Shown here: piece by piece, positions 36,997-54,580 of the stretch
Position numbering within the stretch: the first letter of the stretch is position 1
How the letters are laid out: each line of letters opens with the position of its first letter
Origin: Butyrivibrio sp.
GTDB lineage: Bacteria; Bacillota; Clostridia; Lachnospirales; Lachnospiraceae
Assembly (NCBI RefSeq): GCF_017635265.1
Contig: NZ_JAGBLU010000117.1
Span: 1-64,000 of the forward strand
Length of the DNA: 64,000 bases
Reading direction: 5' to 3'
Translations under genes and position numbers: made by a program
Notes under the pieces: generated by a model
The model's input: the letters and a program-made list of their open reading frames with translations, nothing else
What the model was told of the DNA's origin: nothing
The model's database searches: none

Positions 36997-37470
36997 TCAG
37001 TCACCAATGCATGGGCAATGATACTGAAATAGAGCATTATTTATCAGGTCAATATCATATATCCGCTTTGATAAGAAATACCTGAGAATCATATCGCCCT
37101 TACTATTTGAAGCAAAAGAATAGCCGGCCAATGCCAGAAGATCCATGCTTTCAGCGTAATTAAGTTCAAACGCTATGCACAGAGCAAACACAGTTTTCTT
37201 AGACGGATGGTACCTGCGGTTTTTAATGATCTTATGAAAGAGCCTTCGGTCAATATAAGCTCGTTCATACAGTTCCTTGGTTGATAGCCGTTTTACCCGC
37301 ATATAGTAGAGAACCATAGCTGAAAAGGTGCATGTTTCGTCAACATTCACAAGCATTTCTTCCAGGTCAGAGTTTATCTGATCTTCTGAAATGCCGCTGT
37401 TTATTTCCATGCGAACATCATTGTCAGGATTATTAAGATCAAATATGCAAAAATAACGCGGATTCTTCAT
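36997..37470 (-). CDS. Compact HTH-like regulator at the end of the signalling cluster
   Basis: The 157-residue product starts MKNPRYFCIFDLNNPDN. Its second half is a helix-turn-helix-like domain I have seen at the end of larger conflict-system proteins: MVLYYMRVKRLSTKELYERAYIDRRLFHKIIKNRRYHPSKKTVFALCIAFELNYAESMDLLALAGYSF. This is an XRE-like bundle in which the recognition helix DRRLFHKIIKN is basic. The N-terminal 45 residues form a separate small domain. The ATG at 37470 has no strong ribosome site. The plus-strand gene starts 18 bases away in the opposite direction. Confidence 0.65.
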   Translation of the reverse strand: MKNPRYFCIFDLNNPDNDVRMEINSGISEDQINSDLEEMLVNVDETCTFSAMVLYYMRVKRLSTKELYERAYIDRRLFHKIIKNRRYHPSKKTVFALCIAFELNYAESMDLLALAGYSFASNSKGDMILRYFLSKRIYDIDLINNALFQYHCPCIGD

Positions 37471-37487
37471 TTTAGAAAGGAGCCCCA

Positions 37488-37991
37488 ATGAAAATACTCA
37501 TAATTGATATCAGCCATAACTCATCAATGGCAAAGGTACGTACTTTTCTGCACTTTCACTCCGATGCCAACCTAATTTATACTTTTGATTTCCTATATAC
37601 GGAATATAATTCCGCAGCTGAACTATACGCCGATTTGGAAGAGTATCCTTCAGAGTTCTTCAAAAGCCCCTGTGCATATTATGACTCAGTAACTTCAATA
37701 TTAGGTTCCATAACAAAAATGGTTACAGACTCCGTAATCATATACTCTCCATGCATTGATGAGTGTAGCAGATTATCTAGCGAATTCCTTTACGAAAACT
37801 ATCTACATTACTTTGGCAAATACAATAATTCAGGAGTACTTGATATCAATTTCAATGCTATTGACTTTCGGATGCCTTTGCCATCCGTGAAATCCCCACT
37901 AAAAAAGATCCTCAAAAAAATTACATCATGGACAGCTTTTGGCACAGATGATTCAGAGGAAGATTGCGAAGACTTCTATGATGCCGGCTGA
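37488..37991 (+). CDS. Hypothetical protein, divergent plus-strand gene
   Basis: This 167-residue protein starts MKILIIDISHNSSMAKVRTFLHFHSD with AAAGGAG five bases upstream. I do not recognise its family. It opens with a strand-loop-helix typical of Rossmann-like folds (MKILIIDISHNS) and ends in a basic stretch (SPLKKILKKITSW) followed by an acidic tail (DDSEEDCEDFYDAG). It is the only plus-strand gene in the signalling cluster. Its ribosome site lies only 18 bases from the start of the divergent HTH gene, so the promoter of one of the two must lie inside the other. Confidence 0.6.
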   Translation: MKILIIDISHNSSMAKVRTFLHFHSDANLIYTFDFLYTEYNSAAELYADLEEYPSEFFKSPCAYYDSVTSILGSITKMVTDSVIIYSPCIDECSRLSSEFLYENYLHYFGKYNNSGVLDINFNAIDFRMPLPSVKSPLKKILKKITSWTAFGTDDSEEDCEDFYDAG

Positions 37992-38181
37992 TTATTACAA
38001 ACTTTCCCGTCAATCTATCCCAAGGCAAGATAAATTTTCAAGCGCGTTTTGGAATACAGCTACGACATTGTGTGATGTTCCTGACAACACCCCGCGGTCA
38101 GGAATCATACCACACAGTCAGGGAGCAAAAACTACTAAAAACAATCAGCCGTTACCTCACAAGATATCTCATCGGACTATC

Positions 38182-40734
38182 TTAATAATGTTTTACCCCA
38201 TCATGAAGCCAATACATCCGAATAGTACGCTCATGAACTTGCGGATAATTATCAATTCTGAAAGTTACTTTGTGTTCTCCAGCAGATGTCCCATATGTAC
38301 GATTTATACAGCAAACATGCCAACCGCTCTCAATATTGGTATAGGTATTGACGGCTTCTCTCCCCAGTCTCCATCGCTCATAATAAACCGTATGTACCCT
38401 TTTGTCAGCATCAACCAAACTTTCGTCACCAGTGTATCTGATATTATAATGAATATAAATATCGTTAGCCTCATCGACTTCACTCAAATCGGTAGAAATA
38501 TCATCCTCAGAGTAATTTACGATAATATCCATTGTATAGTAAAACAACGAGTCAAAAATAGCTTGAGAATCTTTATAGCCAATCAATTTAAGCTCAATTA
38601 AGTATTTCTGAGTTTGCACATCTGAAGCATTTTTATTTGCAACCGCGTAATCATACATTGATTGCAACCGCTTATCTTTACTATCCTTATAAGCATCTAA
38701 TTCCTCATATATTTCGACAGCCTTATCATATTCACCATTTTCTCTACAAGACTCCGCCTCTTCATACTTCTTATTGATTTTGGCATCCTTTATCTGGTCA
38801 ATACGACTCTTGCTATCTGAATAATCCTTTATCTGAGAGAATGCCTCTATTGCTTCATCAAACTTCTCCTCAGCAAAAAGAGCTTCTGCCTCATCATATT
38901 GATTCTTCAGCATAATATCGTTAATCTGTTCTATCCTATTTTGACTATCTGAGTATGTTTTTATCTCTGTAAATGCAGAAATTGCCTCCGCATAATTACC
39001 ATTAGATAGTTGAAGTTCAGCTTCTTCATATTTTTCTTTATTAATTGCTTCTGTCGCATTTTCAATTTTTGCCTTGCTATCAAGATAATCGGCAATCTCG
39101 CTGTACGCCTTTATTGCAGCCTCATAATCCCCAGCTGAATACAGTTTTTCAGCATCAGAATACTTCTCGGCATTTATGGTTTCCGTAATAGCATCAATCT
39201 GCACTAAACTATCTTTATATTCATTGGTCTGTTCAAACTCAGATCTAGCCTCAATCAATTGATTATCACTTAAAAATTCAAGTGCTTTGTCGTAATGCTT
39301 AGCATCACTTTCAAGTTGCACAGCCTTTTGCGCCATTTCGCTACTGTCTTTATAATCTCCCAAATCAGAAAAAGCGGCATAAGCTTCATCATATTGTTCC
39401 TTTCCCAATAGCGTCTTAGCTGAAACATATTTAAGGTTAGGAACTATAATATTATTGACAACACTTATAGTTACTGCAAAGGCAGACACTACTATAGCCA
39501 ATGTTGCAACCAATCTCTTTGTCTTTTGTGGCCACCCAATAATCCACTGAACCACAGTGCTTATTCCACTCTTTATAATTGAAAAAAACGTGCCAAATAA
39601 AGCAACAAAATCAACACTTGCCGTGCTTGATGTAGAAGATGTAGCAGAAGGAACAGCTATGGGCGTAGGTACATTAGTAAATGATATTTGTTTTAAAGAT
39701 GGAGTCATTGCATTTGTATATCTTGCATCTGCTTCACACCAAGGACATCCACATAAATCCTTTCGGTACATATGAAGCGGATTTATGTTACATGTAACCA
39801 AATCATTCGAATAATCATTCAATGCTTTGTGCCATTCTCTGGCAGACGGTCTTTGTGAAGGATCAATTTTTCCATACATAAACGCTCTGGTAAACAAATC
39901 TGAAATTTCCTCTGGTAAAACGTCCAGTGGAGGCACTGCTACAGCTTGAGGTTTATTCCCTGGCTTAAAGCAATAACTATCACGTTTTATTGCCTGATTA
40001 CCTTGGCCAGGCGATCCAGTTGAAGCAGATTCAGTCTCTTTTATACCATTAAACGGTGTAAAACCATTCATCAGCAATTTGAATATATGAATCGCAAGCG
40101 CAAAATTATCCGTTTCCTTCGTAAACGTTGGAAGTGGCGCATTTGCATAAGCATCTTTCTTAAATGCCTCACATTTCTTTAATAGTTCCGGTGCAACATA
40201 TCCATCCAAGCACACCTTACACCTATACGCCTTCTGGTCATTTAAAACAATATGGTAACTATCAGTATCCAAAAAAGCAACATTACCATTGCTAACATTC
40301 ACACCGATATTTAAAGGATTAAAATCCCCAAATATATATCCAGCTTCATGAACTGCACTTATGACAGCACAAATATTTTGAGCAATGATTAGTTTTTGTT
40401 GAAATGATAGTTGTAATTTAGGTGGGTATACGTACACCTCGCTCAGTGAAACATCAATGTTTAGCCGTGGCATCACAAAGCCACAGAACGAACCCGAACC
40501 ATCATAAACAGCATCTAACGGCCAAGCAACCTGGTCGATTACATTTCTATCAGGTTGCTTACCAGTCATATACTTGATTTTTTCTTCAAGTTCGTTTGTT
40601 ATCTTATCTTTATGGTACAGCTTAACAACTTGAGCACTGTTTCCACTGATTGCATAAATATCACCCTCTCCACCGCTACTAAATGCCTTTTGCTCAAGTT
40701 CAAAAACATCTCCATATAATCCCGTTACAGTCAT
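38182..40734 (-). CDS. Membrane-anchored Ser/Thr kinase-like protein with TPR-like C-terminal domain
   Basis: This 850-residue protein starts with a bacterial kinase domain of the TerY-P/YegI type. Its glycine loop is SSGGEGDIYAI (19-29) and the ATP-binding Lys is in VVKLY (38). The catalytic loop is GYIFGDFNPLNIGV (Asp about 137), with DTD (156-158) in place of DFG and GYVAPELL (178-185). A zinc-binding-like module CN-INPLHMY ... CGCPWCEAD (315-335) follows. After a linker there is one membrane segment (about 408-430). The rest has at least five repeats of the type YxEAxxxFxxIxDYxDSxxRIxQI (about 450-700), then a C-terminal beta-rich domain. It should phosphorylate partners on Ser/Thr; the repeats are outside the membrane if the topology is as predicted. 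GGAGG precedes the ATG. Confidence 0.85.
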   Translation of the reverse strand: MTVTGLYGDVFELEQKAFSSGGEGDIYAISGNSAQVVKLYHKDKITNELEEKIKYMTGKQPDRNVIDQVAWPLDAVYDGSGSFCGFVMPRLNIDVSLSEVYVYPPKLQLSFQQKLIIAQNICAVISAVHEAGYIFGDFNPLNIGVNVSNGNVAFLDTDSYHIVLNDQKAYRCKVCLDGYVAPELLKKCEAFKKDAYANAPLPTFTKETDNFALAIHIFKLLMNGFTPFNGIKETESASTGSPGQGNQAIKRDSYCFKPGNKPQAVAVPPLDVLPEEISDLFTRAFMYGKIDPSQRPSAREWHKALNDYSNDLVTCNINPLHMYRKDLCGCPWCEADARYTNAMTPSLKQISFTNVPTPIAVPSATSSTSSTASVDFVALFGTFFSIIKSGISTVVQWIIGWPQKTKRLVATLAIVVSAFAVTISVVNNIIVPNLKYVSAKTLLGKEQYDEAYAAFSDLGDYKDSSEMAQKAVQLESDAKHYDKALEFLSDNQLIEARSEFEQTNEYKDSLVQIDAITETINAEKYSDAEKLYSAGDYEAAIKAYSEIADYLDSKAKIENATEAINKEKYEEAELQLSNGNYAEAISAFTEIKTYSDSQNRIEQINDIMLKNQYDEAEALFAEEKFDEAIEAFSQIKDYSDSKSRIDQIKDAKINKKYEEAESCRENGEYDKAVEIYEELDAYKDSKDKRLQSMYDYAVANKNASDVQTQKYLIELKLIGYKDSQAIFDSLFYYTMDIIVNYSEDDISTDLSEVDEANDIYIHYNIRYTGDESLVDADKRVHTVYYERWRLGREAVNTYTNIESGWHVCCINRTYGTSAGEHKVTFRIDNYPQVHERTIRMYWLHDGVKHY

Positions 40735-40923
40735 ATATCCTCCATCTTGTATTAGTAATCACAATGGATCATTGCTATATAACTTATTTCATGTTTCATT
40801 TTAGTGTAAAACGGTTGATAAATACCCGGATCCCCAAAAGCACAAAAAGTCACATATTTAATAGATGTACATATAAAGCATATGAATATCGCCTTGTTTT
40901 TCACGATACCTATTGGTCTTCAC

Positions 40924-41802
40924 CTATTTTATCTTCATATCTGAATAAGGAGTAGATTCATAGCCACTTTTTTGAAGTCTTTCCACAAAAGGATCCAACT
41001 TTTTACGCCATATTTTATTAAACAATGTATATGAGCCAAACATTCTAACAATCAGAGGACTAACCGCATAATATAATCTAATAAAAGCACGCCCATACCA
41101 ATGTTCTGCAAGAGTATAATCACGGTATCGCCTTAATGTCCATACTTCCGGACAGTCATACGAACCATATACTGCGGTTGCTATATAACACCCGCCACTA
41201 GAAGAATTTGTATTAGAGTTCTGAGCATCGCTAGACGCAAACCAGCCTGGGGCTACAGTTGTAGTAGTTTGTCCACCACTGTCCCAAAACTCTGAATCAT
41301 ACACTTGCTGTGCAATTGGAGCATTGCCAAAAGATATATGCGGAAAGCCAACAGAATTATCTGCAAAATATTTAACAGACTTAATTCCATCATTCTCATC
41401 AAGTCTTTTTATGGCGTTCGAAACCTCCCAGGCCGCATTATATACTCCGCAGTCATTATCACTATTTAAGTTATAGTGATCACCGCTCTCAAAGCAGCAT
41501 ACAACCGCATTAAAACAATGCTCTGATGACGCAATGAGCTTATATTCCCCTATTTTATATGTTTTACCTTGATTTGCTGTTGTACCTATCTCACCATTCT
41601 CGGAAACAATTACATTATTTAAACTGGAAATGTGCTGAAGAATATCCACCGGCGTCTTATTATAAGACACAACAATAGAATCTAAAGAACCTCCGCCAAG
41701 AGCAATTGACCAATTTGCCAATTCTGTTGCAACTCTACTGCTCCCAGACATAATGTCCGGTCCAGATATGCTATTCACATCATTAAATTCTCTTTGTATC
41801 AT
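40924..41802 (-). CDS. CFI-box C-terminal protein 1
   Basis: The C-terminal 100 residues (SSGGCYIATAVYGSYDCPEVWTLRRYRDYTLAEHWYGRAFIRLYYAVSPLIVRMFGSYTLF...) match what I know as the CFI-box-CTERM pattern: CYIAT, YG, then PEVxxLRRYRDYxLAEHWYGRAFI and YYxxSPL. The same module with over 75% identity is found in the protein at 53054. The N-terminal 190 residues are unique, cysteine-containing and end in a low-complexity linker (SDAQNSNTNSSSGG). The module has conserved Cys, Tyr and Arg positions and is thought to act as a C-terminal recognition or processing signal. AGGAGG lies upstream of the ATG. It stands between the two kinase genes. Confidence 0.75.
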   Translation of the reverse strand: MIQREFNDVNSISGPDIMSGSSRVATELANWSIALGGGSLDSIVVSYNKTPVDILQHISSLNNVIVSENGEIGTTANQGKTYKIGEYKLIASSEHCFNAVVCCFESGDHYNLNSDNDCGVYNAAWEVSNAIKRLDENDGIKSVKYFADNSVGFPHISFGNAPIAQQVYDSEFWDSGGQTTTTVAPGWFASSDAQNSNTNSSSGGCYIATAVYGSYDCPEVWTLRRYRDYTLAEHWYGRAFIRLYYAVSPLIVRMFGSYTLFNKIWRKKLDPFVERLQKSGYESTPYSDMKIK

Positions 41803-41924
41803 ATAAGCCTCCTATACACTGTGCCCGAGTTTTTATAAAAATGATTTATCTGTGCCAAATCTTATCATTCGACATTAAGAAAAACTAATTTCCTTATCCT
41901 AATAATATCGTGTTAAACACTATA

Positions 41925-44129
41925 TCATATTCCTAGCACCTCCCTTATAGTCGTACACCCAGCTATTATTATTGTAATAAAGGCCGGTGCAACAACAAAC
42001 CAATGCGTTGCTTCCCCTACTGATGCAGGGCTTCCACCCATAACCTGCAAATCTGCGTATGCTCCCGCAATAAAAAACACAAAAAAGAAAGCAAATATTA
42101 GTCCCCCCATAAATCCATGTATTTCAGACATTGCATAGACGATAAACAAAAGAGCCACTATAGCAAGTATTATCCACCCAAAAAGAGCTCCTGCACTTCC
42201 TACTTTTCCCCACCATAAAACCAAGCAAGTAAAATATGTCGTCATCGATGCCCCAAACCAGGCATTAACAGATTCTCCCTTCTGAATAATTGATGTATTA
42301 TAGCCCACTCCAAAGACAACAATCGGGATTAACCAAATTGCTATAGCAACCAAATTATAGCTTCTTACATAAAAGTAGTATGTTTCTAAGTTCCATAATA
42401 ATGGAGTGCATGCGATACTTGCAGCAACCATAAAAATCATAAATAGCATTTCATTAAACTCAAACTGATGCTTCCTATTTGATAGGTTTTTAAAAGCGCC
42501 TCCCGTCCTATTCACTATGTATTTATTGACTTTTTGTGGCCCAATTATCGAAACCACAAATAAAAACATTAGTATTCCAAATGTTTTCCATGCTTCACCA
42601 GCGCTTGCTTTACTGTAGCCTAATTGAGTATATCTTACAGTTGCTGCAGATATACTAAAAACAAACCCCCATATGCCAGATATGTATTTTGCCAAGTCAC
42701 CTTTACTTTTTCTTGAAAAGGCATTCATCAAGGATAAAATCAAAACTCCCATCTCTGCTATTAAACTGCTTTTCACCACATCTATATTGTATATATTTGT
42801 TTCATCCAAATGAATTGAGCCACCTTCAACTAATGGTGCACAAACAGCTATAACACTTGCTGTAAATGCCAACCAACCAAGCATTCCAAATAGATCAAAG
42901 CCATTCCCTTTAGCCTTGGCCTTACCCTTTTTCCAAGACTGTGCTCCACCATACACATTCGATGTAATAGCAGCCCCCATACCTGCCTGACCAACCACAC
43001 CTGTAGAAATATTCATGCTAGTAGGTGGCGTAACAGCAGGTCCCGAAAAACTCTTCTGTACCATTTGCGGGGACATCATATCAAAATATCTCTTATCTGC
43101 CTCGCACCAAGGACATACATTTAATCCTCTTAAATACATATGGGTTGGATTATTGCTACATGTCTCTAAGTTTTTCTCAAATTCATCAAGTGCTTTATGC
43201 CACTCGATTGCTGATGGCCTTTTTGCAGGATTTTTCTTACCTTCAATGAATGCTCTTGTAAATAGATCACAAATACTCCTTGGCAATGTTTCCAATTCAG
43301 GAACAGCGACAGCTTGTGGCTTCTTGCCTTTTTTAAAGCAATAATTATCTCGTTTAACCGCATCATCCCCTTGCCCCGGTGAGCCAACAGAAACAGATTC
43401 CCCCTCTGGGATTCCATTAAAGGGTGAGTATCCATTCATCAAAAGCCGAAACATATGGATAGCCAATGCAAAATTATCAGTCTCCTCAGTGAATGTGTCC
43501 AACGGAGTTTTGGCATATGCTTCTTTTTTATATTCAGGATGAGAAGAAACATAAGCTGAACATTTATTCAACAATTCTGGAGCAGCATATCCCGGAGCAC
43601 AAACATTACACCTATATGCTTTATCTTTCCCCTTATCAAGAACAATATGGTAACTATCAGTATCAAGGAAGGCAACCGCTCCCGTGCTGAGGTTAACACC
43701 TATATTTCTCGGATTAAAATCTCCAAATATATATCCCGCCTTATGAACCTCATGAATAACAACACAGATATTTTGTGCAAGGATGAGCTTCTGTTTGTAC
43801 GTTATTCCAGTTTTTGGAGGATAAACATATACTTCATTCAGTTCATGAGTGATGTTAAGTTTAGGCATCACAAACCCACAGAATAATCCAGCAGAATCAA
43901 ATACCACATCTAAAGGCCAAGCCACCTGGTTCAGAACGCTTGATGATGGAGGTCTCTGTACCATAAGTTTGAGCTTTTCTTCAAGAATTTGTGTAGCACT
44001 AGATTTCTTATATATCTTTATAACCTGACTGCTATTGCCTGATATGGCAAAAATATCCCCTTCGCCACCGCTGCCCAGAGGCTTTTGCTCAAGCTGATAG
44101 CGTCTCCCATTCAACCCTGAAACAACCAT
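41925..44129 (-). CDS. Ser/Thr kinase-like protein with polytopic membrane tail
   Basis: This 734-residue protein is a paralogue of the kinase at 38182. The kinase domain shares GSGGEGDIFAI, VIKIYKK, EVYVYPPK, GYIFGDFNPRNIGV and FLDTDSYH. CSNNPTHMY ... CPWCEAD is the zinc-like module. Instead of the TPR-like region, the C terminus has a linker and about eight to ten membrane helices (from about residue 415). It may sense or gate something at the membrane under kinase control. The two genes differ in the tail but not in the kinase core, so each may direct the same phosphorylation to a different place. The ATG is 5 bases after GAGTGA. Confidence 0.83.
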   Translation of the reverse strand: MVVSGLNGRRYQLEQKPLGSGGEGDIFAISGNSSQVIKIYKKSSATQILEEKLKLMVQRPPSSSVLNQVAWPLDVVFDSAGLFCGFVMPKLNITHELNEVYVYPPKTGITYKQKLILAQNICVVIHEVHKAGYIFGDFNPRNIGVNLSTGAVAFLDTDSYHIVLDKGKDKAYRCNVCAPGYAAPELLNKCSAYVSSHPEYKKEAYAKTPLDTFTEETDNFALAIHMFRLLMNGYSPFNGIPEGESVSVGSPGQGDDAVKRDNYCFKKGKKPQAVAVPELETLPRSICDLFTRAFIEGKKNPAKRPSAIEWHKALDEFEKNLETCSNNPTHMYLRGLNVCPWCEADKRYFDMMSPQMVQKSFSGPAVTPPTSMNISTGVVGQAGMGAAITSNVYGGAQSWKKGKAKAKGNGFDLFGMLGWLAFTASVIAVCAPLVEGGSIHLDETNIYNIDVVKSSLIAEMGVLILSLMNAFSRKSKGDLAKYISGIWGFVFSISAATVRYTQLGYSKASAGEAWKTFGILMFLFVVSIIGPQKVNKYIVNRTGGAFKNLSNRKHQFEFNEMLFMIFMVAASIACTPLLWNLETYYFYVRSYNLVAIAIWLIPIVVFGVGYNTSIIQKGESVNAWFGASMTTYFTCLVLWWGKVGSAGALFGWIILAIVALLFIVYAMSEIHGFMGGLIFAFFFVFFIAGAYADLQVMGGSPASVGEATHWFVVAPAFITIIIAGCTTIREVLGI

Positions 44130-44235
44130 ATATCACTCACGCTTTCTGATTAACATTATTACCAGTCATCTATAAAGGCAGTGCACATTCCTCTTTATAA
44201 TAGCGGTCTATATCAGAGAAAAATCCAACACCGAA

Positions 44236-46646: not shown

Positions 46647-46648
46647 TT

Positions 46649-47599: not shown

Positions 47600-47658
47600 T
47601 ATTCCCTTTATTGTTCTAATAACTTGTCACCTCTACATGATTCTTTTGACCAACACCA

Positions 47659-48597
47659 TCAATCCTCTGGAATATCTTGATTGGCTTGTTGTTCCTCATT
47701 TTCGCTATAATTCACGACATTCTTATCTTCATCTTTAAACAAATGTGGATACGCGGCCCTTTTCCATGCATCCTCGTATTTTTTCTTCAAGGCTATCCAA
47801 TCCGGTTCAGCATAATACTCAGCCGGTTGCAAGCTATATGATGCAGATGTATTCATAATGACTACTACTGTTTTGTCATCATTTACCTGTGCCGCAGATA
47901 TACCGCTCATAAATTTGCCTATCTTTTCTTGTACTGCCTCCTCTCCTTCCGATTCAATTTTTAGACTTTTAGGATCCATGAAGAACTTTGCTAACGCTGT
48001 ATAAATGCTCACCTCTTCATCTCTTATATATATTGGGAAAAGGATTTCATACATTCCATCTGTTGCTAAGAATACACTGACTACAGGATTTTCATACTTT
48101 TTTATAATCCATTTTTCCTCGCCAAAAAATAAAGGAAGCACCCGGCCGTCAGAGTCTCTTTGCTGTTCCGTAACTTTGCAAAACTTACCATCCGTAGTCA
48201 TGGCAATTATCCCGCTATCACCAGAATGTCCATAATATAGGCAGTCATCAATCAGAATCGCAAGCGAAAGAGTAGTGTCATACTGATCAAAATCATGACC
48301 ATTCTCTGTTGCAATCTGTTCGATTGTATTTTGAGACAACTCAAACGAATCTTTTATCACCCCAAGAATCTCTTCCTCGGTCGAATTACTTTTTATATGG
48401 TCTGAACAATATTCTGTAGATAACTCCGAGGCTGTCTTTGATGCCACATCTGAGTGTTCCTCACTTCCAAGGCCATCTGCAACAGCTGCAATAATCATAT
48501 TCTCACTACACTTAATTATTTTATGATAATCTTGACATACCACGTTATTCTTAACGTGGTATGCACCCTGCTGTGTAACCCCATAGGCATATATCAT
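47659..48597 (-). CDS. PP2C family protein phosphatase
   Basis: This 312-residue protein has PP2C motifs in order: CQDYHKI (residues 21-27), VADGLGSEEHSDVASKTA (39-56), YDTTLSLAILIDDCLYYGHSGDSGI with the GD metal-binding pair, FLATDGMYEILFP and QVNDDKTVVVIMN. The acidic metal ligands (D40, D128-like, D245-like) are all visible. It should remove phosphate from the kinases' substrates. An additional acidic tail follows (residues 250-312). GGAGG lies upstream. It sits beside the VWA gene, as YegK does in the YegI/YegK/YegL triad. Confidence 0.9.
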   Translation of the reverse strand: MIYAYGVTQQGAYHVKNNVVCQDYHKIIKCSENMIIAAVADGLGSEEHSDVASKTASELSTEYCSDHIKSNSTEEEILGVIKDSFELSQNTIEQIATENGHDFDQYDTTLSLAILIDDCLYYGHSGDSGIIAMTTDGKFCKVTEQQRDSDGRVLPLFFGEEKWIIKKYENPVVSVFLATDGMYEILFPIYIRDEEVSIYTALAKFFMDPKSLKIESEGEEAVQEKIGKFMSGISAAQVNDDKTVVVIMNTSASYSLQPAEYYAEPDWIALKKKYEDAWKRAAYPHLFKDEDKNVVNYSENEEQQANQDIPED

Positions 48598-48629
48598 GTT
48601 TTATCTGCCTCCTTGTGTCGGTTGTACTA

Positions 48630-49325
48630 TTACATCCAATCATCCGTATCTTTATCAACGTTGTCAGGAAGCGGTACTCCTTTTGGCTTTTCTCCAGGAG
48701 AACTTACCGAAACAGAACGCATGCTCTTATTTACCCAATCAAAGAAGCTTGAAAAATCATATCCTTTCAACTTCATTACTTTGGGGCCAGAAAGACGGTG
48801 CAGCGTCTGAGGATCATAACCTTCAACCCCCAGTGAGAAGAACTTCAATTTCTCATTTTCTTCCATGTCCTGAATCACCTTCACAATTTCTGTTATATCA
48901 TCCTGTGGCGCACCATCAGAGATCATAATAATCCAAGGCTTGTACGGCTCTGTTCCTGATCGGCGATAAAACCTTGACCTCTCATTTACCATATCAATTG
49001 CTTTCTGAATAGCTGGAGACATATTAGTACCGCCATTTGCAACAAGATTAACAGGCTCCATATATTCAATAGGTACGAACTCCTGAACAACATTAAGACC
49101 AGAGTTAAACTCGACAATGGCGATATCCAGTACATCTCTGGTTGTTTTATCCTCACATACATCAAGCTTAAACTTATTCAAACCCTCATTAAGCTCTCTT
49201 ATGGGTTCGCCACCCATTGATCCTGATGTGTCAAGCAAAAGCAAACAGGCCATATGTGGCTCACTTGCGTTGACAATCGTAGGAATGTCCTCGTTAAACG
49301 ATCTCTGCATCATTTCTTCTTCCAT
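48630..49325 (-). CDS. TerY-like VWA domain protein
   Basis: The start is ATG 49325 (MEEEMMQRSF) with AGGAGG 8 bases upstream, giving 231 residues. The VWA domain shows the MIDAS motif DTSGSMGGEPI, the Thr in GGTNMSPAI and the Asp in ISDGAPQDD; the family reading is TerY-like (PCLLLLDTSGSM... VEFNSGLNVVQEF, VEGYDPQTLHRLSG). VWA proteins of this group hold together the phosphosignalling triads. No membrane segment is present. It is encoded between the ATPase partner and the phosphatase. Confidence 0.9.
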   Translation of the reverse strand: MEEEMMQRSFNEDIPTIVNASEPHMACLLLLDTSGSMGGEPIRELNEGLNKFKLDVCEDKTTRDVLDIAIVEFNSGLNVVQEFVPIEYMEPVNLVANGGTNMSPAIQKAIDMVNERSRFYRRSGTEPYKPWIIMISDGAPQDDITEIVKVIQDMEENEKLKFFSLGVEGYDPQTLHRLSGPKVMKLKGYDFSSFFDWVNKSMRSVSVSSPGEKPKGVPLPDNVDKDTDDWM

Positions 49326-49429
49326 TTCTGTTCCCTCCTTATGTTTGGAATTATCTATCATCTTCTACATTATCTTTTTTTCATCTCCATCTGGCACTCC
49401 GTATTCTCTATACTGACAAACCATAGTTT

Positions 49430-50716
49430 TCACAAAATTGGCACATATGACACTTCGCCTGTTATCTTGTCCATAATAAACACTTCGTCTACAGCCATTC
49501 CCTGTATCTCCTCTGGTTTCACCCTGTTTTCCCTCTTTATATTTATACTGGCAGTATGCGTAGTTCCATACCCCCAATGTCCCACATAATTCGAATTTTG
49601 CGCATAAGAGTTGTTTATCTCATGCTTATCATAAGACCCAATAATATCAGAATACTTCTGGCAGCTATGCGCAGAGGAATGTTTAGAGATTATAATCTTC
49701 GAGCATTTCCCGGAAAATGCAAAAAAATCATTATCATTTCCTCCAAATCCAGAATAGACATCATCTGATGAAGCAACCACACTATAATTGCCGCCTCCTC
49801 TTTTGATGTAATCCATCAGTACATCGCTTGTACATATCTGAATACCATCTGCCACAATCATTGTCTTTCCACCTTGAGATATGATGGTTTCCGCTTCATT
49901 CACAAGTGTGTTGATCAACACCGTATTTGTACTTGACTGTACATCGACAGAAAGAATCAGTTGTTTATGTGATGCATCCACATAATTCACAGCATTACTG
50001 GCATTTGTTTTTTGCGCCAAGATAGAAGCGCCCTGTCTAGATAATGCTTGAAAAAAAGCCTCGATATTACCTCGTTCGATCTCTCCTTGCATTATTTGAG
50101 ATATTATGTTTCTCGCCTCATTTTGTGATATTCTGCCCTGGTTTTCTGCCTTATTTACTCCATCTATAAAGGTCAGATGAGGACAGTTAATATACATATA
50201 GCATCTTGGACTCTTTCGATTTGCTCTTATATAATCACTTATCCCATTGATATAGTAGCGACCGGCAGCGTTAATCTTGTAGTCCTTTGTTGAAGAAGAA
50301 ACTATCAATCTCGCAATCTCGTTGTTTGAAGCTCCTATGAAAGGATCATAAATAGGATTATTCCCATTAACAATGCATACATTCCCTGCTCCAAAAAAAT
50401 TAGCAACACTATTTTCTAACTCTCTATTACTGCTATGTAGCAAAAGTACGGAGTATCCCTGTAAAAAAGCGCATTCTATTGCTCGTGTAATCGAACGTAC
50501 ACGTATCGTATTGGCTCCGCCCGTAAACATCATGTTCTCGAGAGGGTTATTTTCATCAAAAAAAGCTTCTATATCACTTGGTTCATACCTGAGCACACCT
50601 TGATTGGCTTCATTTTCGCGCTGAACAGACATTAAAGCCTTTTGTGTTCTTCTGTTCGCTATTCCTGCCACCATAAAACCAGCAAGACCGCTCGAATGAT
50701 TATTAAAAAGACTCAT
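49430..50716 (-). CDS. Partner of the VirD4/HerA-like ATPase, lacking a Walker A motif
   Basis: This 428-residue protein starts MSLFNNHSSGLAGFMVAGIANRRTQKAL, with AGGAAGG upstream. The central part has a RecA-like order of strands (YSVLLLHSSN, CIVNGNNPIYDPFIG, TMIVADGIQICTSDVLMDYIKRGG), but no GxxGxGKT is present. The C terminus (RVKPEEIQGMAVDEVFIMDKITGEVSYVP) has the ending of TraG/VirD4-type proteins. It overlaps the ATPase gene by 4 bases, so the two are made together. It may form mixed rings with the ATPase, in which only one subunit hydrolyses ATP. Confidence 0.65.
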   Translation of the reverse strand: MSLFNNHSSGLAGFMVAGIANRRTQKALMSVQRENEANQGVLRYEPSDIEAFFDENNPLENMMFTGGANTIRVRSITRAIECAFLQGYSVLLLHSSNRELENSVANFFGAGNVCIVNGNNPIYDPFIGASNNEIARLIVSSSTKDYKINAAGRYYINGISDYIRANRKSPRCYMYINCPHLTFIDGVNKAENQGRISQNEARNIISQIMQGEIERGNIEAFFQALSRQGASILAQKTNASNAVNYVDASHKQLILSVDVQSSTNTVLINTLVNEAETIISQGGKTMIVADGIQICTSDVLMDYIKRGGGNYSVVASSDDVYSGFGGNDNDFFAFSGKCSKIIISKHSSAHSCQKYSDIIGSYDKHEINNSYAQNSNYVGHWGYGTTHTASINIKRENRVKPEEIQGMAVDEVFIMDKITGEVSYVPIL

Positions 50717-52038
50717 ATCCGATCCTTCCTAAACAAATCGAATCTATACTTGAACGGCTTCTGAAAAGGAAAGCTAATAATAGCCTCACCCACCTCAAGT
50801 TCATTCATATTCCAATCTTCTACAACATGACCATCGTGCCTCTCCTCATGCACGGAGTTATTAAGAGTCCTGTGCTGTTCAATTACTACATTCTTTCCGA
50901 GTAGTCCCACAATATAATCTCTTGTAAAAATATCATTTGCCCTAAAAGCATATATAGACGAGAAACCTGCTAAAATGTTTTTTCCTCTATATTCTCCATA
51001 TGCTTCTGTTAGTTGGTTAATGCTTTGAAGACCAGCAAATACCTTTACGCCAAGACTTCTTCCAAAATTCACGCCGTCATCTATATGTTGCAAATATGGT
51101 ATAAGCCTAAACTCATCGCATATAAGATACACATCACCTTGAGGCTTTTTTCTTCCCAAAGCTTCTTTTAACGCAAGATCAAACAGCAAACTATAAATAG
51201 GTGCCAGTGTCTCACCAATCGAAATGTCATACTCAATAAATAAAACCCTTCCGCCCCTTTTTCTTACAAAATCTCTTATTGAAAACATTCCTCTTTCATC
51301 AAAGCAAGCAGAAAGCAATTTTCTTACTGTACCTAACATTTCGGCATATACGCCAAGTGCTTGTCCATTAGTTCCATCTCCGATATAGCTAAGAACTGAC
51401 GCAAACTGTGGATGAGATTCGATCATTGCCTTCACATCAAAAATTGTTGATTCATCAAGTGCTCTCTTTAATTCATTATTGAACAAACAATCCTTTCTAT
51501 ATTCAATATCATCCTTTCCCTCGTGTAACATGCACAATAGTATTGCAGCAAACAAATCTCGTGCCGCATTAGGGAAAAACGGATCCTTACTTTTGTCAAT
51601 GGATTCCTTGAATATCGACCATGATAATTCCTGTGTATTAAGTGAAACTTCTTTAGATTCCCAACCATCAGCCACTATTTCCTTAAAAATATTCCATTTC
51701 TCAGAAATATCTGCGAACTCACGTCCGCCTCCAATAATTACATCATTTTGAGCCGAAAACAATTTGTAATAATCACCTTTTGTATCAAAAATAATCATCA
51801 CATCGTCTAAAGACATTTTCTTTTTTACCTGCTCTACAATATGGTAAAAAACATTTGACTTTCCACATCCCGTCCCACCAATAAGCATGGTGTGCTTGCT
51901 CAATATATCCTTATTAATACCAAGGCATTTTGAAGTTCCTCTAAATGTCCCTGGAATAGTAATATAAGGATCCACAAATTCAACCATTGGATTATGGTCT
52001 AATATTGAGCCATAGATTGAAGAAAGCTTTATATCCAT
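50713..52038 (-). CDS. VirD4/HerA-like ATPase of the signalling cluster
   Basis: This 441-residue protein has Walker A HTMLIGGTGCGKSNVFYHIV (about 50-68) and Walker B GDVYLICDEFRLIPYL (about 305-320). The block VKVFAGLQSINQLTEAYGEYRGKNILAGFSS follows, the TraM/TraG recognition region of coupling proteins. It lacks the N-terminal membrane helices of the element's own VirD4, so it is a soluble ring ATPase of the TraD/HerA group. It is clearly distinct from the conjugation VirD4 at 32632. The ATG overlaps nothing upstream; GAGGG precedes it. Confidence 0.83.
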   Translation of the reverse strand: MDIKLSSIYGSILDHNPMVEFVDPYITIPGTFRGTSKCLGINKDILSKHTMLIGGTGCGKSNVFYHIVEQVKKKMSLDDVMIIFDTKGDYYKLFSAQNDVIIGGGREFADISEKWNIFKEIVADGWESKEVSLNTQELSWSIFKESIDKSKDPFFPNAARDLFAAILLCMLHEGKDDIEYRKDCLFNNELKRALDESTIFDVKAMIESHPQFASVLSYIGDGTNGQALGVYAEMLGTVRKLLSACFDERGMFSIRDFVRKRGGRVLFIEYDISIGETLAPIYSLLFDLALKEALGRKKPQGDVYLICDEFRLIPYLQHIDDGVNFGRSLGVKVFAGLQSINQLTEAYGEYRGKNILAGFSSIYAFRANDIFTRDYIVGLLGKNVVIEQHRTLNNSVHEERHDGHVVEDWNMNELEVGEAIISFPFQKPFKYRFDLFRKDRI

Positions 52039-52044
52039 CTCTGT

Positions 52045-52422
52045 TCACCCTCTGATTCTTGTATTATTAGCCAATAAAGGTTTACCATCTTCATGTATTT
52101 TTGTCACAAATATTCTTAACTGCTCAATTATTTGATTTATTGTTAAGTTCTTCTCTAACTCATAGTTTTCGCCTTCTATTGTATTGAGCGGTTCATCACA
52201 CACCCCCACTATGCTTATCTGTTCATTTTTATTTTTTTTTATACCCACCAAAAAAGATATAATCAACCGAGCTTGTTCCTCTGATGTTATAGTTTTACTC
52301 CATGATATACATTTTAGTAATGTATTTAAGTTGTCGCGCACTATAATTCCTATCTGGTTCTTATTCTCTTCGAACAAAACAAGAAGCATGTTCCATTCAC
52401 TCTCACTAAATTGATATTTCAT
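52045..52422 (-). CDS. Hypothetical protein upstream of the ATPase
   Basis: This 125-residue protein has no recognised family. It is helical with alternating hydrophobics (MKYQFSESEWNMLLVLFEENKNQIGIIVRDNLNTLLKC) and ends LLANNTRIRG, six bases before the ATPase start. No ribosome site is strong. Its consistent position suggests a partner of the ATPase. It might be an adaptor. Confidence 0.55.
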   Translation of the reverse strand: MKYQFSESEWNMLLVLFEENKNQIGIIVRDNLNTLLKCISWSKTITSEEQARLIISFLVGIKKNKNEQISIVGVCDEPLNTIEGENYELEKNLTINQIIEQLRIFVTKIHEDGKPLLANNTRIRG

Positions 52423-52437
52423 ATGCCACTTTGTAAT

Positions 52438-52644
52438 TTAACGCCCACGCGTATTATCTCTGTTTTCTTCTCTTTTATCGTTGATATCATTTAAAGGCTT
52501 CTTATCACTATTAATCGTAAAAGCATTTTTCTTTTTCGAACCCTTTTCTAAGCTGCTATATATCTCGGATCTGAATGCCTTTAATTTTTTTTTGCTATCT
52601 TCTAAATTATTCTCCGAAGTTATTCTTTCAAAACCATTCTTCAT
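52438..52644 (-). CDS. Small charged protein, 68 residues
   Basis: This product is very rich in K, E, D and N (SENNLEDSKKKLKAFRSEIYSSLEKGSKKKNAFTINSDKKPLND ...). It is probably disordered with one helix. Translation signals are weak; it is included because it fits the spacing in the run of genes. I recognise no family. Confidence 0.4.
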   Translation of the reverse strand: MKNGFERITSENNLEDSKKKLKAFRSEIYSSLEKGSKKKNAFTINSDKKPLNDINDKREENRDNTRGR

Positions 52645-52667
52645 TTATTTACCATCCATTTGTAGCA

Positions 52668-52988
52668 TTATATAATGCTTTCGTTGGGACTAATTTGGTC
52701 ATTAAACTTCATTATCAAATCAATAGGATAAATACGTAGTTCCTCCAGCATTTCTGATGTGTCATTAATAGCATCAAAAACAAATATCAGTGCCAAAAAC
52801 ATAGACCACGTCATAGTTTTCTTCCCACTTTCTACCGGATAATAAGTTTGGCGAGTAACTCCAATAATACTGGCAAGTTCTTCCTGGCTAATCCCTATTT
52901 TTGCTCTTAGCGCAGATAGATTATTCTGCAGAAGATCAATGCTTGCTTTTTTATAATTATTTGATATTATCCATTTATCTTGTACCAA
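52668..52988 (-). CDS. XRE-family HTH regulator of the signalling cluster
   Basis: The start is taken as TTG 52988 because a perfect AAGGAGG lies 8 bases upstream and the 53017-53043 terminator ends just before it; the frame is open further up to 53060. This gives 106 residues with a canonical helix-turn-helix: LRAKIGISQEELASIIGVTRQTYYPVESGKKTMTWSMFLALIFVFD. It probably controls this cluster. The C-terminal 35 residues are helical. Confidence 0.75.
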   Translation of the reverse strand: MVQDKWIISNNYKKASIDLLQNNLSALRAKIGISQEELASIIGVTRQTYYPVESGKKTMTWSMFLALIFVFDAINDTSEMLEELRIYPIDLIMKFNDQISPNESII

Positions 52989-53013
52989 ATCACCGACCTC
53001 CTTCCATTTATTT

Positions 53014-53045
53014 AAAAGGGTAATGAGTCTAAGCCCATTACCCCC
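53014..53045 (-). terminator. Terminator of CFI-box protein gene 2
   Basis: GGGTAATG (53018-53025) and CATTACCC (53036-53043) form an 8-bp stem with a 10-base loop. On the minus strand CCCTTTTAAAT follows. It lies 8 bases after the CFI-box gene stop. Confidence 0.75.
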
Positions 53046-53053
53046 ATAATCAT

Positions 53054-53974
53054 TTACCAATGCTTGTCTTCATAATAAGTCGATTCAATTCCCTTATTTT
53101 GGAGATCTCTCACCAATACATCAAGTCTTGATTTCCAAACTTTTTTAAACCATGCAGTATGCCCAAATAGTTTAACAGCCAGCGGACTTAATGTATAATA
53201 TACATGAATGAATGCTCGCCCATACCAATGCTCGGCAAGCTCATAATCACGGTATCTCCTCAATGTCCATACTTCTGGGCAATCATAAGATCCATATACA
53301 GTTGTTGCTATATAGCATCCCCCTCCAGTACTGCCACTTCCAGAAGTATTACTCGTAGAGCCGCTCAAGATACCATTCCCCCATACCTCCGCTGGATTTC
53401 CTGTCTTATACCAGGTTGGAATAATAGGTGCATTATCTTTAAGCATTGTGGTATAGGGCTCTTGTAGTTTAATCGAATTTCTAAACGCATCAGCAACCTC
53501 AGAATGTACAAAATAGAATCCCTTATCCTCAAACGATTTTTTCTCAGGAAAATCTATCTTCTCAACCGAGGCGCCTTCAATCTTAATGCACATATCCATA
53601 TATGTTGATACTGTAGTCATCCGATGTACAAGGCTTTTCCATTCGTCATCTGTCTCATCGCCACGGACAGACACCAAATATAGAATTACTGCTCCAAAAT
53701 GATCATCTATGTTTTCTATTAAGGCATAACTCCAGTTAACATTCACCCCATCAACATACACAACCGAGTCAGAGAAGTTGCATCTCGCAGGTGGCGTTGC
53801 CTGAGCGATATAACTAAGCTTATTGCTAAGGGCTTCTAATATCTGCAGTGCCGTCATAGTATAGGAATAAACAATAAAGCCCATCCTTCCCATGGCGATT
53901 TCACATTTCAAAACACCAATATCCTCATTGGGGTATTGTGAATGCTCATCTGGTGTTATAAAATTAGATCCCAT
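53054..53974 (-). CDS. CFI-box C-terminal protein 2
   Basis: The start is ATG 53974 (MGSNFITPDEHSQYPNED), with AAGGAGA 8 bases upstream. The 306-residue product has an N-terminal domain unrelated to that of the protein at 40924 (IGVLKCEIAMGRMGFIVYSYTMTALQILEAL, then FGAVILYLVSVRGDE). A serine/glycine linker follows, then the CFI-box module: GGGCYIATTVYGSYDCPEVWTLRRYRDYELAEHWYGRAFIHVYYTLSPLAVKLFG. It has its own terminator and lies downstream of the 54359 gene. With 40924 it frames the cluster, one at each end. Confidence 0.75.
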   Translation of the reverse strand: MGSNFITPDEHSQYPNEDIGVLKCEIAMGRMGFIVYSYTMTALQILEALSNKLSYIAQATPPARCNFSDSVVYVDGVNVNWSYALIENIDDHFGAVILYLVSVRGDETDDEWKSLVHRMTTVSTYMDMCIKIEGASVEKIDFPEKKSFEDKGFYFVHSEVADAFRNSIKLQEPYTTMLKDNAPIIPTWYKTGNPAEVWGNGILSGSTSNTSGSGSTGGGCYIATTVYGSYDCPEVWTLRRYRDYELAEHWYGRAFIHVYYTLSPLAVKLFGHTAWFKKVWKSRLDVLVRDLQNKGIESTYYEDKHW

Positions 53975-54149
53975 GTATTGTCTCCTTCTGTGCATATAAT
54001 AAAATGTTTGAAACGATTGCTAACTTTGGCCTAAAAAGTAGACAATAATATGACAACTACAATACAATGCCGCTTCCGATAACTTCTTATAAACTATCAC
54101 CGATATCTAACCGCTTCTCAGGCACTATCTCTATATAATCTATAAATAT

Positions 54150-54185
54150 AAGGGTAATGAACCCCTCTGGCCTTCCATTACCCTT
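54150..54185 (-). terminator. Terminator of the 54204-54359 gene
   Basis: AAGGGTAATG (54150-54159) and CATTACCCTT (54176-54185) form a perfect 10-bp stem with a 16-base loop. ATATTTAT follows on the minus strand. The same AAGGGTAATG stem sequence is used in the terminator at 53014, a sign of duplication. Confidence 0.7.
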
Positions 54186-54203
54186 TACGCACCTAACACG
54201 ATA

Positions 54204-54359
54204 TCACATACAATACTTGCTATACTCTCTCTCCGCATCAGTAAGTGAAGAAAATGGACCATATTTTGATCTTCCATCCATAACATAAACCCAAAATGTA
54301 TTTCCATCCCCTTCAATCCAGCATCTACCATATGAACCATTTCCTTCTTTGTAAATCAT
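54204..54359 (-). CDS. Small protein, 51 residues
   Basis: The start is ATG 54359 (MIYKEGNGSYGRCWIEGDGNTFWVYVMDGRSKYGPFSSLTDAEREYSKYCM), with AAAGGAGGG 7 bases upstream, the strongest ribosome site in the cluster. The product is aromatic- and glycine-rich, probably a single small beta domain with a C-terminal helix. I recognise no family. It is the first gene after the 54.6-kb promoter. Confidence 0.6.
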   Translation of the reverse strand: MIYKEGNGSYGRCWIEGDGNTFWVYVMDGRSKYGPFSSLTDAEREYSKYCM

Positions 54360-54580
54360 ATAAACCCTCCTTTTAGTCATTGACATTTACACAGCAACAC
54401 CCTGTTGGCCTTGCATTAACCAATAATTCTCAAAGAGGTCACCATGCACATTCCGAAAAGTCCATCATCAAAATTCTCATACCTCATCAATGTATAACAA
54501 TTATTTCCAGATGATAGATCTCTCAATCAGCTATTCAAGAATATAATCTTGAAAAAGTGACCAACCTCGTATTGATGAGA

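What the first reader, a model, noticed from the sequence alone, without database searches (positions are those of the whole stretch)
36997..54386. A 17-kb kinase, phosphatase, VWA, ATPase and toxin cluster that may be an undescribed conflict or stress system
Inside the element, between the transfer genes and the replication block, about 17 genes stand almost all on the minus strand with tight spacing and several overlaps. Seen directly: two kinase-like proteins with a zinc-like CPWC module, a PP2C phosphatase, a VWA protein with intact MIDAS, a VirD4/HerA-like ATPase and a partner without Walker A, a transglutaminase-like protein, a nuclease toxin with an immunity-like partner, two proteins with the same CFI-box C terminus, an XRE regulator and a small leading gene. 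Kinase, phosphatase and VWA protein form the core of TerY-P (YegI/YegK/YegL) systems, which Ter-related work links to stress and DNA processing. The addition of a ring ATPase pair, a transglutaminase and a nuclease module is not a combination I know. Inference: phosphorylation state sensed by the kinases could gate the ATPase and release or activate the nuclease.
Basis: partly seen in the sequence, partly recalled or inferred. Interest (0 to 1): 0.88.

Follow-up and report, generated by a model that had tools for sequence, protein, structure and literature searches.

The report
Kinase-linked ring-motor toxin gene cluster
A block of genes carried by a mobile element in an uncultured bacterium looks like a machine in which a kinase-phosphatase switch controls a ring-type motor that handles a DNA-cutting toxin, a combination that I did not find described.

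Summary
The cluster fills one swappable cargo slot of a conjugative element (ICE): a sister element has the same backbone on both sides and other cargo between. It holds a TerY-P-like triad (divergent kinases with a CPWC module, PP2C, VWA), a soluble TrwB/VirD4-like ATPase, a P-loop-less partner, a transglutaminase-fold enzyme, and an HNH toxin with Syd/SUKH immunity. The unit recurs in RUG12067 outside this element. Most of the parts list recurs in a distant family (G716) with another HNH toxin and another SUKH protein in the cargo place. New: both toxins carry the nuclease at the N-terminus and a long charged, presumably unstructured C-terminal tail, and across ATPase relatives the gene just upstream of the ATPase often encodes a tailed protein (8 of 14 versus 10 of 208 control genes), although only 3 of 15 tailed proteins have a recognised enzyme domain. 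I read it as a toxin-handling module in which the ATPase engages the tail and the triad gates it; own-cell release or export is open. The ATPase occurs without kinase and VWA in 14 of 17 loci, so this is a composite. No structure could be predicted.

The parts
36930..54883 (.). Variable cargo slot of the ICE, 17954 nt, holding the whole cluster
   Evidence: sister ICE in G779 matches window 58618-54884 (86%) and 36929-32452 (84%) with other cargo between
54204..54386 (-). p60, small leading gene, 60 aa
   Evidence: 76% identical copy in the RUG12067 cluster
53054..53995 (-). CFI2: variable N-terminus + CFI-box-CTERM domain
   Evidence: NF041770 8e-19; only the C-terminus matches the RUG12067 protein by tblastn
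52668..53060 (-). XRE-type regulator
   Evidence: HTH_3 8e-7; 78% in RUG12067
52438..52644 (-). p68, small protein with charged C-terminal tail ending RGR
52045..52422 (-). p125, unknown
   Evidence: no family; 45% in RUG12067
50713..52038 (-). TrwB/VirD4-like ATPase, Walker A GGTGCGKS, no membrane-like segment by hydropathy
   Evidence: TrwB_AAD_bind 1e-39; hydropathy; motif
49430..50716 (-). Partner: no P-loop; possibly a degenerate relative of T4CP-like ATPases
   Evidence: no P-loop; suggestive profile match, E 9e-7 over 317 columns to two proteins that had been selected with this same profile
48630..49361 (-). VWA protein, MIDAS DTSGSM read by eye
   Evidence: VWA 4e-10; 227/231 identical in RUG12067
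47659..48597 (-). PP2C phosphatase
   Evidence: PP2C_2 2.5e-23
46649..47599 (-). Transglutaminase-fold enzyme, Cys-His-Asp triad apparently intact
   Evidence: Transglut_core 7e-15; the three positions align in 4 homologues
46104..46724 (-). Syd/SUKH-2 immunity protein (true start probably a later ATG, as in RUG12067)
   Evidence: PF07348 2.6e-7
45400..46104 (-). HNH (HHH) nuclease toxin, domain 33-133, then a basic S/T/N/K/Q-rich tail ending GSKSQSR
   Evidence: PF15637 8e-45; tail composition and conservation
44236..45297 (-). CC353, coiled-coil-like by eye, unknown; no match in the RUG12067 stretches searched
41925..44129 (-). KinB: kinase + CPWC module + membrane-like segments
   Evidence: kinase motifs; Pkinase 0.0017; hydropathy 2.77
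40924..41802 (-). CFI1: variable N-terminus + CFI-box-CTERM domain
   Evidence: NF041770 5e-21
38182..40734 (-). KinA: kinase + CPWC module + membrane-like segment + TPR repeats
   Evidence: kinase motifs; TPR; hydropathy 2.57; 62% in RUG12067
36997..37488 (-). HTH-like protein in the slot; no match in the RUG12067 stretches searched, membership doubtful
   Evidence: HTH_26 0.013

Best explanation
The cluster is a conflict system built from two modules. Signalling module: a TerY-P-like triad (membrane kinases KinA/KinB with a C-terminal CPWC module, PP2C, VWA). Toxin-handling module: a soluble TrwB/VirD4-type ATPase with a P-loop-less partner, a transglutaminase-fold enzyme, and an HNH nuclease held by a Syd/SUKH immunity protein. 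The nuclease carries at its C-terminus a long basic, Ser/Thr/Lys/Gln-rich, presumably unstructured tail. I propose that the ATPase ring engages this tail as coupling proteins engage C-terminal signals, and pulls or passes the toxin away from its immunity protein when the kinase/phosphatase balance shifts; the tail is a possible kinase substrate, and the transglutaminase-fold enzyme may modify or cut it. I lean to release inside the cell (a stress or anti-invader suicide response), because no membrane segment of the ATPase and no channel gene belongs to the unit. Shown: parts, recurrence, tail statistics. Inferred: ring formation, role of the partner, tail recognition, phosphorylation of the tail, and where the toxin acts.
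For: The same unit in RUG12067 at another site (core proteins 86-98% identical, periphery 43-77%). Distant G716 locus: two VWA, a PP2C-like protein, kinase, SUKH-1, Tox-GHH HNH toxin, ATPase, M48 peptidase, transglutaminase fold: cargo of the same kind from other families, i.e. swappable. The gene just upstream of the ATPase is tailed in 8 of 14 non-redundant loci versus 10 of 208 genes more than 3 places away (p 8e-7; 12 settings gave 1.4e-4 to 9e-8); within 3 places 14 of 98 versus 13 of 239. Recognised N-terminal domains of tailed proteins: HNH-HHH, GHH, non-specific endonuclease. Precedents: TfdA of S. maltophilia has an N-terminal GHH nuclease, a C-terminal VirD4-binding signal and an immunity partner (PMC11253643, passages); on a Priestia plasmid a similar HNH domain sits at a protein's C-terminus, with no tail, behind an LXG gene and before Syd.
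Against: Kinase and VWA are missing from 14 of 17 ATPase loci (several cut by contig ends), so the coupling of the modules rests on two lineages. Only 3 of 15 tailed proteins searched have a recognised enzyme domain; 12 do not. In 6 of the 14 loci the -1 gene is not tailed (window, L042, L046, L055, L057, L059); in the window the toxin lies six genes downstream of the ATPase. The tail rule was noticed before it was tested, ORFs were called mechanically, some loci are related, and one of the eight (Curtobacterium) contradicts the record's annotation. The partner's kinship to ATPases is weak: proteins selected with its profile that look unrelated reach E 5e-4, the T4CP-like ones 1e-5 to 4e-6 singly, and T4CPs not so selected 0.08 and 0.2. 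A frame that looks by eye like a site-specific recombinase lies some 6 kb beyond KinA in RUG12067, so that copy may be mobile too. No structure or binding evidence.
Confidence: 0.45

Rival explanations
1. Export: the ATPase is a coupling-type motor that delivers the tailed toxin to neighbouring cells, through the ICE's own type IV channel or an unknown one, and SUKH protects the sender and its kin.
For: T4CP-like ATPase, C-terminal tail, cognate immunity, cargo polymorphism, TfdA precedent, a similar toxin/immunity pair behind an LXG gene in Priestia; the cluster rides on an ICE with transfer genes.
Against: No membrane-like segment in the ATPase; no channel gene recognised in the unit; no transfer gene seen by eye in the RUG12067 stretches (their flanking ORFs were not profiled).
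Confidence: 0.33
2. Loose cargo island: TerY-P-like signalling genes, an ATPase gene pair and a toxin-immunity cassette happen to share one slot and one transcript without forming one pathway.
For: Modules occur apart in most loci read; the slot takes other cargo in the sister ICE.
Against: Same set at an independent site and most of the set in a distant family with other toxin/immunity families; tight spacing and overlaps such as ATPase/partner.
Confidence: 0.18
3. DNA-processing restriction system: the TrwB-like ring translocates on DNA (as HerA in defence) and the HNH nuclease cuts invading DNA; the basic tail is just DNA-binding.
For: Profile matches to Mad8 (2e-17) and HerA (7e-8) defence ATPases; basic tail; TerY-P is linked to DNA restriction and processing systems (PMC11090510, passage).
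Against: A SUKH immunity protein is not expected for a self-sparing restriction nuclease; in 7 of 13 tailed proteins measured the tail is acidic, and some N-terminal parts show an HExxH motif by eye rather than a nuclease (G118, G289, G587).
Confidence: 0.12

Closest known systems
TerY-P triads extended with a TM-less FtsK/EssC ATPase and WXG100 proteins (PMC11090510 and PMC4978471, passages read; my example L023)
   Same: Kinase, PP2C, VWA beside a ring-type ATPase and cargo; L023 also has a Gln_amidase-type toxin domain
   Different: Here the ATPase is TrwB/VirD4-like with a P-loop-less partner; cargo has no WXG/LXG head but a C-terminal tail; plus transglutaminase fold and SUKH/HNH
Bactericidal VirB/VirD4 type IV systems (S. 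maltophilia TfdA, PMC11253643, passages read)
   Same: N-terminal GHH/HNH nuclease, C-terminal signal, immunity partner, VirD4-family ATPase
   Different: No dedicated channel seen, ATPase without membrane-like segment, low-hydrophobicity tail instead of an XVIPCD fold, TerY-P-like triad
YegI/YegK/YegL-type kinase-PP2C-VWA loci (triad composition recalled; plasmid YegI hits)
   Same: Kinase 28% identical to annotated YegI
   Different: Their neighbourhoods were not read here
MADS defence system (Mad6 kinase, Mad8 ATPase)
   Same: Closest named defence models: mad8 2e-17 for the ATPase and mad6 1e-4 for KinB; the G716 kinase hits MAD6 at 1e-18
   Different: G716 kinase far below the family cut-off (66.9 of 460 bits); no methyltransferase in the slot

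Membership tests
TerY-P triad | VWA protein of TerY type | tested here: inconclusive
   VWA domain clear, 4e-10; PADLOC TerY only 0.0096
TerY-P triad | PP2C phosphatase in the same operon | tested here: met
   PP2C_2 2.5e-23, 32 nt after VWA
TerY-P triad | Ser/Thr kinase with C-terminal zinc ribbon | tested here: inconclusive
   Kinase motifs and an invariant C..H..CPxC module in 3 proteins; Pkinase below cut-off; zinc binding not testable
Conjugative coupling protein (T4CP) | TrwB/TraD-type motor domain with Walker A | tested here: met
   TrwB_AAD_bind 1e-39, GGTGCGKS
Conjugative coupling protein (T4CP) | N-terminal membrane anchor | tested here: not met
   Maximum 19-residue hydropathy 1.38, at residue 272; a crude test (the ICE's own T4CP reaches 1.70)
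Conjugative coupling protein (T4CP) | Serves the element's own transfer apparatus | tested here: inconclusive
   The ICE encodes its own T4CP at 32632-34389; service by the cluster ATPase cannot be excluded
Minimal type VII / WXG100 extension of TerY-P | FtsK/EssC ATPase and WXG100 proteins | tested here: not met
   None among the cluster proteins searched
MADS | Full set including DNA methyltransferase (recalled) | tested here: not met
   No methyltransferase match among the slot's proteins searched; the EcoRII pair at 14575-17057 is outside the slot
Polymorphic toxin with SUKH immunity | Known toxin domain plus adjacent immunity gene | tested here: met
   PF15637 and PF07348, overlapping by 1 nt
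Polymorphic toxin with SUKH immunity | Toxin domain at the C-terminus behind a trafficking domain | tested here: not met
   Toxin domain at 33-133 of 234 aa, tail behind it

The most novel reading that the evidence does not exclude
A previously undescribed, polymorphic toxin-handling machine of Bacillota and perhaps beyond: a soluble VirD4/TrwB-type ATPase, sometimes with a P-loop-less sister, whose cargo are proteins tagged by a long charged C-terminal tail. In this cluster the tail is basic and Ser/Thr-rich, and a TerY-P-like switch turns it on by phosphorylating the tail, making it resemble the constitutively acidic tails of most kinase-less relatives; a transglutaminase-fold enzyme processes the tail. 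In one relative (G386) the module is coupled to a diversity-generating retroelement that mutates a candidate sensor.
Probability: 0.25. Interest if true: 0.88.

Novelty: new variant of a known kind. Interest (0 to 1): 0.7.

Why it matters
The output of TerY-P triads is, to my knowledge, unknown. A cluster in which the triad shares an operon-like run with a motor and with a toxin whose tail is both a plausible handle and a plausible kinase substrate makes that output testable with a few purified proteins. If the tail rule holds in a broad survey, it would define a class of VirD4-family machines that handle toxins rather than conjugative DNA, and give a way to find their cargo from sequence.

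Tried and rejected
Rejected: the cluster ATPase as the ICE's only coupling protein (a separate T4CP exists); MADS and WXG100/type VII membership (defining parts not found); the partner as a close paralogue of the ATPase (profiles do not match, E 0.27). G587 as a carrier of the partner family: alone it matches the partner at E 0.0083 and is not shown to be related to the G118/G289 proteins. The 412-aa G716 protein as a partner homologue: E 0.012, no better than an unlikely candidate in the same call (L040, 0.009, 43 columns). HTH163, the plus-strand ORF 37488-37991 and CC353 are left out of the core: no match in the RUG12067 stretches searched. Led nowhere: three viral-contig scans with partner, kinase and ATPase profiles found no relative; kinase in phage records 3 weak hits of 50,697; partner in plasmids no match, in solved structures no match; HNH toxin in plasmids 3 records, G716 toxin 2 records, none covering 80%; the word CFI-box in no paper of the library; promoter and terminator scans not above shuffles. 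Weak partner hits in G605 and G437 lie in loci that look unrelated and were used only as a baseline; G527 and G418 hits are T4CP-like and were used. In the listings of the literature searches I saw nothing that describes this combination; the library is open-licence only. The primary TerY-P paper (Anantharaman 2012) was not read; I know it through citing papers and recall.
Full report
What is there. Most of it is an integrative conjugative element: tyrosine integrase 399-1691, EcoRII restriction-modification pair 14575-17057, relaxase 20098-21495, VirB4-type ATPase 27982-30432, T4CP 32632-34389, RepA_N/ParB/ParA 55178-58054. A sister element in a genome of the same genus (G779, RepA 86% identical) matches the window at 58618-54884 and 36929-32452 and carries other cargo between, with ABC transporter, FeoB and P-type ATPase genes. 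The cluster is therefore one exchangeable cargo slot, about 36930-54883.

Gene by gene. From p60 to KinA sixteen genes run on the minus strand with spacings of -76 to +208 nt as called: p60, CFI2, XRE, p68, p125, ATPase, partner, VWA, PP2C, transglutaminase fold (TGase), SUKH, HNH toxin, CC353, KinB, CFI1, KinA; an HTH gene follows after 693 nt. The kinases are divergent: Pkinase E 0.0017 for KinB, none for KinA, but SGGEGDI, a lysine, GDFNPxNI and LDTDS are invariant in KinA, KinB and a third kinase from RUG12067, followed by a C..H..CPxC module.

The partner. It has no P-loop. Its profile (3 sequences) matches two T4CP-like proteins (L027, L028; TrwB_AAD_bind 4e-12 and 3e-13) over 317 columns at E 9e-7; sixty column-shuffled profiles reached at best 0.098, the reversed profile 0.18, four other families at best 0.24. 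But those two proteins had been picked with this same profile from 391 genomes, which the shuffles do not copy. Proteins picked the same way that look unrelated reach 5e-4 singly, L027 and L028 singly 4e-6 and 1e-5, and two T4CPs not so picked only 0.08 and 0.2. In a set of 355 neighbour proteins the real profile's best hits are L027 1.4e-8 and L028 7e-7, but an unrelated one (L029) is third at 1.4e-6; 60 shuffled profiles reached at best 0.026. Against the cluster ATPase the profile shows nothing (E 0.27). Descent from T4CP-like ATPases is therefore suggestive, not shown. The proteins beside the ATPase in G118 and G289 together match the partner at E 2e-4 over 312 columns, no P-loop in G118; with G587 added the joint alignment gave 1.3e-5, but G587 alone is not convincing. 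Recurrence of the pair in those genomes is a lead.

Recurrence of the unit. (a) RUG12067 (G776): CFI protein, p60, XRE, p68, p125, ATPase, partner, a third kinase, VWA, PP2C, TGase, SUKH, HNH, start of KinB on contig C27; end of KinB and KinA on contig C3. KinB residues 60-316 fall between the contigs, so their adjacency is inferred. By eye, carB- and serS-like genes lie upstream and a lepA-like gene downstream; a recombinase-like frame lies about 6 kb after KinA. Identities: VWA 227/231, ATPase 402/441, partner 392/428, PP2C 267/311; HNH 180/234, SUKH 137/180, TGase 212/316, p125 54/122, CFI 113/264. (b) G716, another family of the class: two VWA (VWA_4 3e-12, 2e-13), a PP2C-like protein (SpoIIE 3e-4, below cut-off; Stp1 4e-5), kinase (3.5e-20), two zinc-finger-like proteins by eye, SUKH-1 (1e-12), a Tox-GHH toxin (1e-16), ATPase, a 344-aa and a 412-aa protein, M48 peptidase (2e-24), TGase (4e-7). 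The 412-aa protein matches the partner only at E 0.012. (c) G386: TGase (30%) and partner (27%) on one contig, ATPase (51%) on a second that overlaps it by 90 exact bases; no triad in the stretches held.

How common. Each count includes the own genome. Partner: 2 of 397 genomes of the family; 5 of 391 of the class by profile at E 0.001, the four others weak. Kinase profile: 5 of 391 of the class at 1e-10. ATPase: 8 of 397 of the family at 1e-30, 7 of 391 of the class at 1e-40. The ATPase also has relatives at 34% and 32% on Paenibacillus and Curtobacterium plasmids (I fetched 2 of the 4 best of 4998 matching records). Of 17 ATPase loci read, profiles of kinase and VWA hit 3 (window, RUG12067, G716). 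Of the 4 kinase loci other than the window's, two had VWA and PP2C (L023, L025) and none this ATPase. The modules thus usually live apart.

The tails. The window HNH protein has its nuclease domain at 33-133 of 234 residues and then a basic, S/T/N/K/Q-rich tail; between window and RUG12067 the first 150 residues are 127/150 identical and the rest 53/84 with 11 gap positions, but the last seven residues GSKSQSR are identical. The G716 toxin has the same plan, domain at 11-76 of 287 and a tail ending HSKGH. G386 has two tailed proteins directly before the ATPase, ending GQRR and GQSR. In other ATPase loci the neighbour is, for example, a non-specific endonuclease with an acidic tail (G194), proteins with an HExxH motif by eye and acidic tails (G118, G289, G587), or long repeats (G262, G347). 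'Unstructured' is judged from composition; no disorder prediction was run. Of 15 tailed proteins given to Pfam or NCBIfam, 3 have a recognised enzyme domain (window HNH, G716, G194), 12 do not. Defined as at most 15% hydrophobic residues in the last 40, the gene just upstream of the ATPase is tailed in 8 of 14 loci, against 10 of 208 genes more than three places away (p 8e-7); twelve settings gave 1.4e-4 to 9e-8. Rows dropped before that count: RUG12067 (near-copy of the window), G289 (orthologue of G118), G466 (fragment). An earlier count over all 17 gave 8 of 17 for the -1 gene and 14 of 98 within three places, against 13 of 239 further away. Limits: the rule was seen before it was tested, ORFs were called mechanically, some loci are related, and in the Curtobacterium record the tailed frame lies opposite an annotated gene. 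The -1 gene is not tailed in the window, L042, L046, L055, L057 and L059; in the window the -2 gene p68 is and the toxin lies six genes downstream. L042 and L046 have an acidic-tailed protein at +1 and +3. Among 13 tailed proteins that I chose to measure, all 6 basic ones end in R or H and none of 7 acidic ones do.

How it may work. T4CPs recognise protein substrates through C-terminal signals. In S. maltophilia the effector TfdA is an N-terminal GHH nuclease with a C-terminal VirD4-binding domain and an immunity partner (PMC11253643, passages). On a Priestia plasmid a similar HNH domain sits at a protein's C-terminus directly behind an LXG gene and before a Syd gene. The cluster has the same kind of toxin/immunity pair with a C-terminal tail and a VirD4-family motor. 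I infer that the tail is the handle. TerY-P is described as a probable phosphorylation switch attached to restriction and stress systems and, in some cases, to a TM-less FtsK/EssC ATPase with WXG100 proteins (PMC11090510, PMC4978471, passages); L023 is a similar case with a Gln_amidase-type toxin domain. The cluster would be the VirD4-family counterpart. The Ser/Thr-rich basic tail is a plausible kinase substrate; phosphorylation would make it acidic, like the tails of most relatives whose loci lack a kinase. That correlation is suggestive only: two loci in which no kinase was found (G386, G347) have basic tails. TGase was found in 4 loci (window, RUG12067, G716, G386), all with basic tails.

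Own cell or export. For own cell: ATPase without membrane-like segment, no channel gene recognised in the unit, a copy outside any recognised conjugative element (though perhaps mobile), and relatives near a TIR-NTPase gene (G289) or a ClpP gene (G194). For export: the ATPase family, the immunity gene, cargo polymorphism, the TfdA and LXG precedents, and an ICE apparatus next door. I put own-cell release slightly ahead.

A side finding. In G386 the gene between the partner and the ATPase region encodes a zinc-ribbon-like protein (by eye) whose C-terminus is the variable region of a diversity-generating retroelement: the two 127-nt repeats differ at 24 positions, all 24 at template adenines, with a reverse transcriptase (RVT_1 1e-17) and an Avd-like gene (by eye) beside them. 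DGR-diversified putative sensors have been proposed in other conflict systems (PMC10907252, passages).

Novelty and odds. Each protein family is known; TerY-P with a ring-type ATPase is known in kind. The set found here and the tailed-protein pattern around this ATPase family did not appear in the listings of the literature searches made, in a library that lacks most subscription journals. I file it as a new variant of a known kind, with a possible new class of toxin-handling machine as the bold reading.

Noticed in passing
L039 (G386 contig C35) 11691-15538: Diversity-generating retroelement in the partner/ATPase/transglutaminase locus: 127-nt repeats, 24 of 24 mismatches at template adenines, variable region at the C-terminus of a zinc-ribbon-like protein.
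   Followed up: partly
L023 5211-14767 (G444): VWA, PP2C, kinase, FtsK-type ATPase, two WXG100-like proteins (below cut-off) and a Gln_amidase-type toxin domain in a row.
   Followed up: partly
L025 8533-13682 (G582): A kinase that also matches CFI1/CFI2 (phmmer 3e-8 and 3e-9), followed by two VWA and a PP2C; may link the CFI box to these kinases.
   Followed up: no
L045 6354-10372 (G194): ClpP-type protease, a VirD4-like ATPase with P-loop, a tailed non-specific endonuclease and the TrwB-like ATPase in a row.
   Followed up: partly
L043 2709-17010 (G289): A TIR protein with an NTPase domain and TPRs, a ThiF protein and an AAA_2 protein around the ATPase locus; looks like a defence island.
   Followed up: no
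L015 9471-10178 (RUG12067): A frame that looks by eye like a site-specific serine recombinase, about 6 kb beyond KinA; the second copy of the cluster may lie in a mobile or decayed element.
   Followed up: no
window 14575-17057: EcoRII-type endonuclease and cytosine methylase carried by the ICE, with an ArdC-like anti-restriction protein at 23247-24461.
   Followed up: no
window 37488-37991 (+): A 167-aa plus-strand ORF divergent from the HTH gene inside the slot, no match in the RUG12067 stretches searched.
   Followed up: no
L047 10128-11858 (Curtobacterium plasmid): A plus-strand frame with an acidic repeat tail ends just before the ATPase gene, but the record annotates a gene on the other strand there; one of the two is probably wrong.
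   Followed up: no
L041 10607-12721 (G347): 704-aa protein made mostly of Gln/Lys-rich repeats behind a short hydrophobic N-terminus, just before the ATPase.
   Followed up: no
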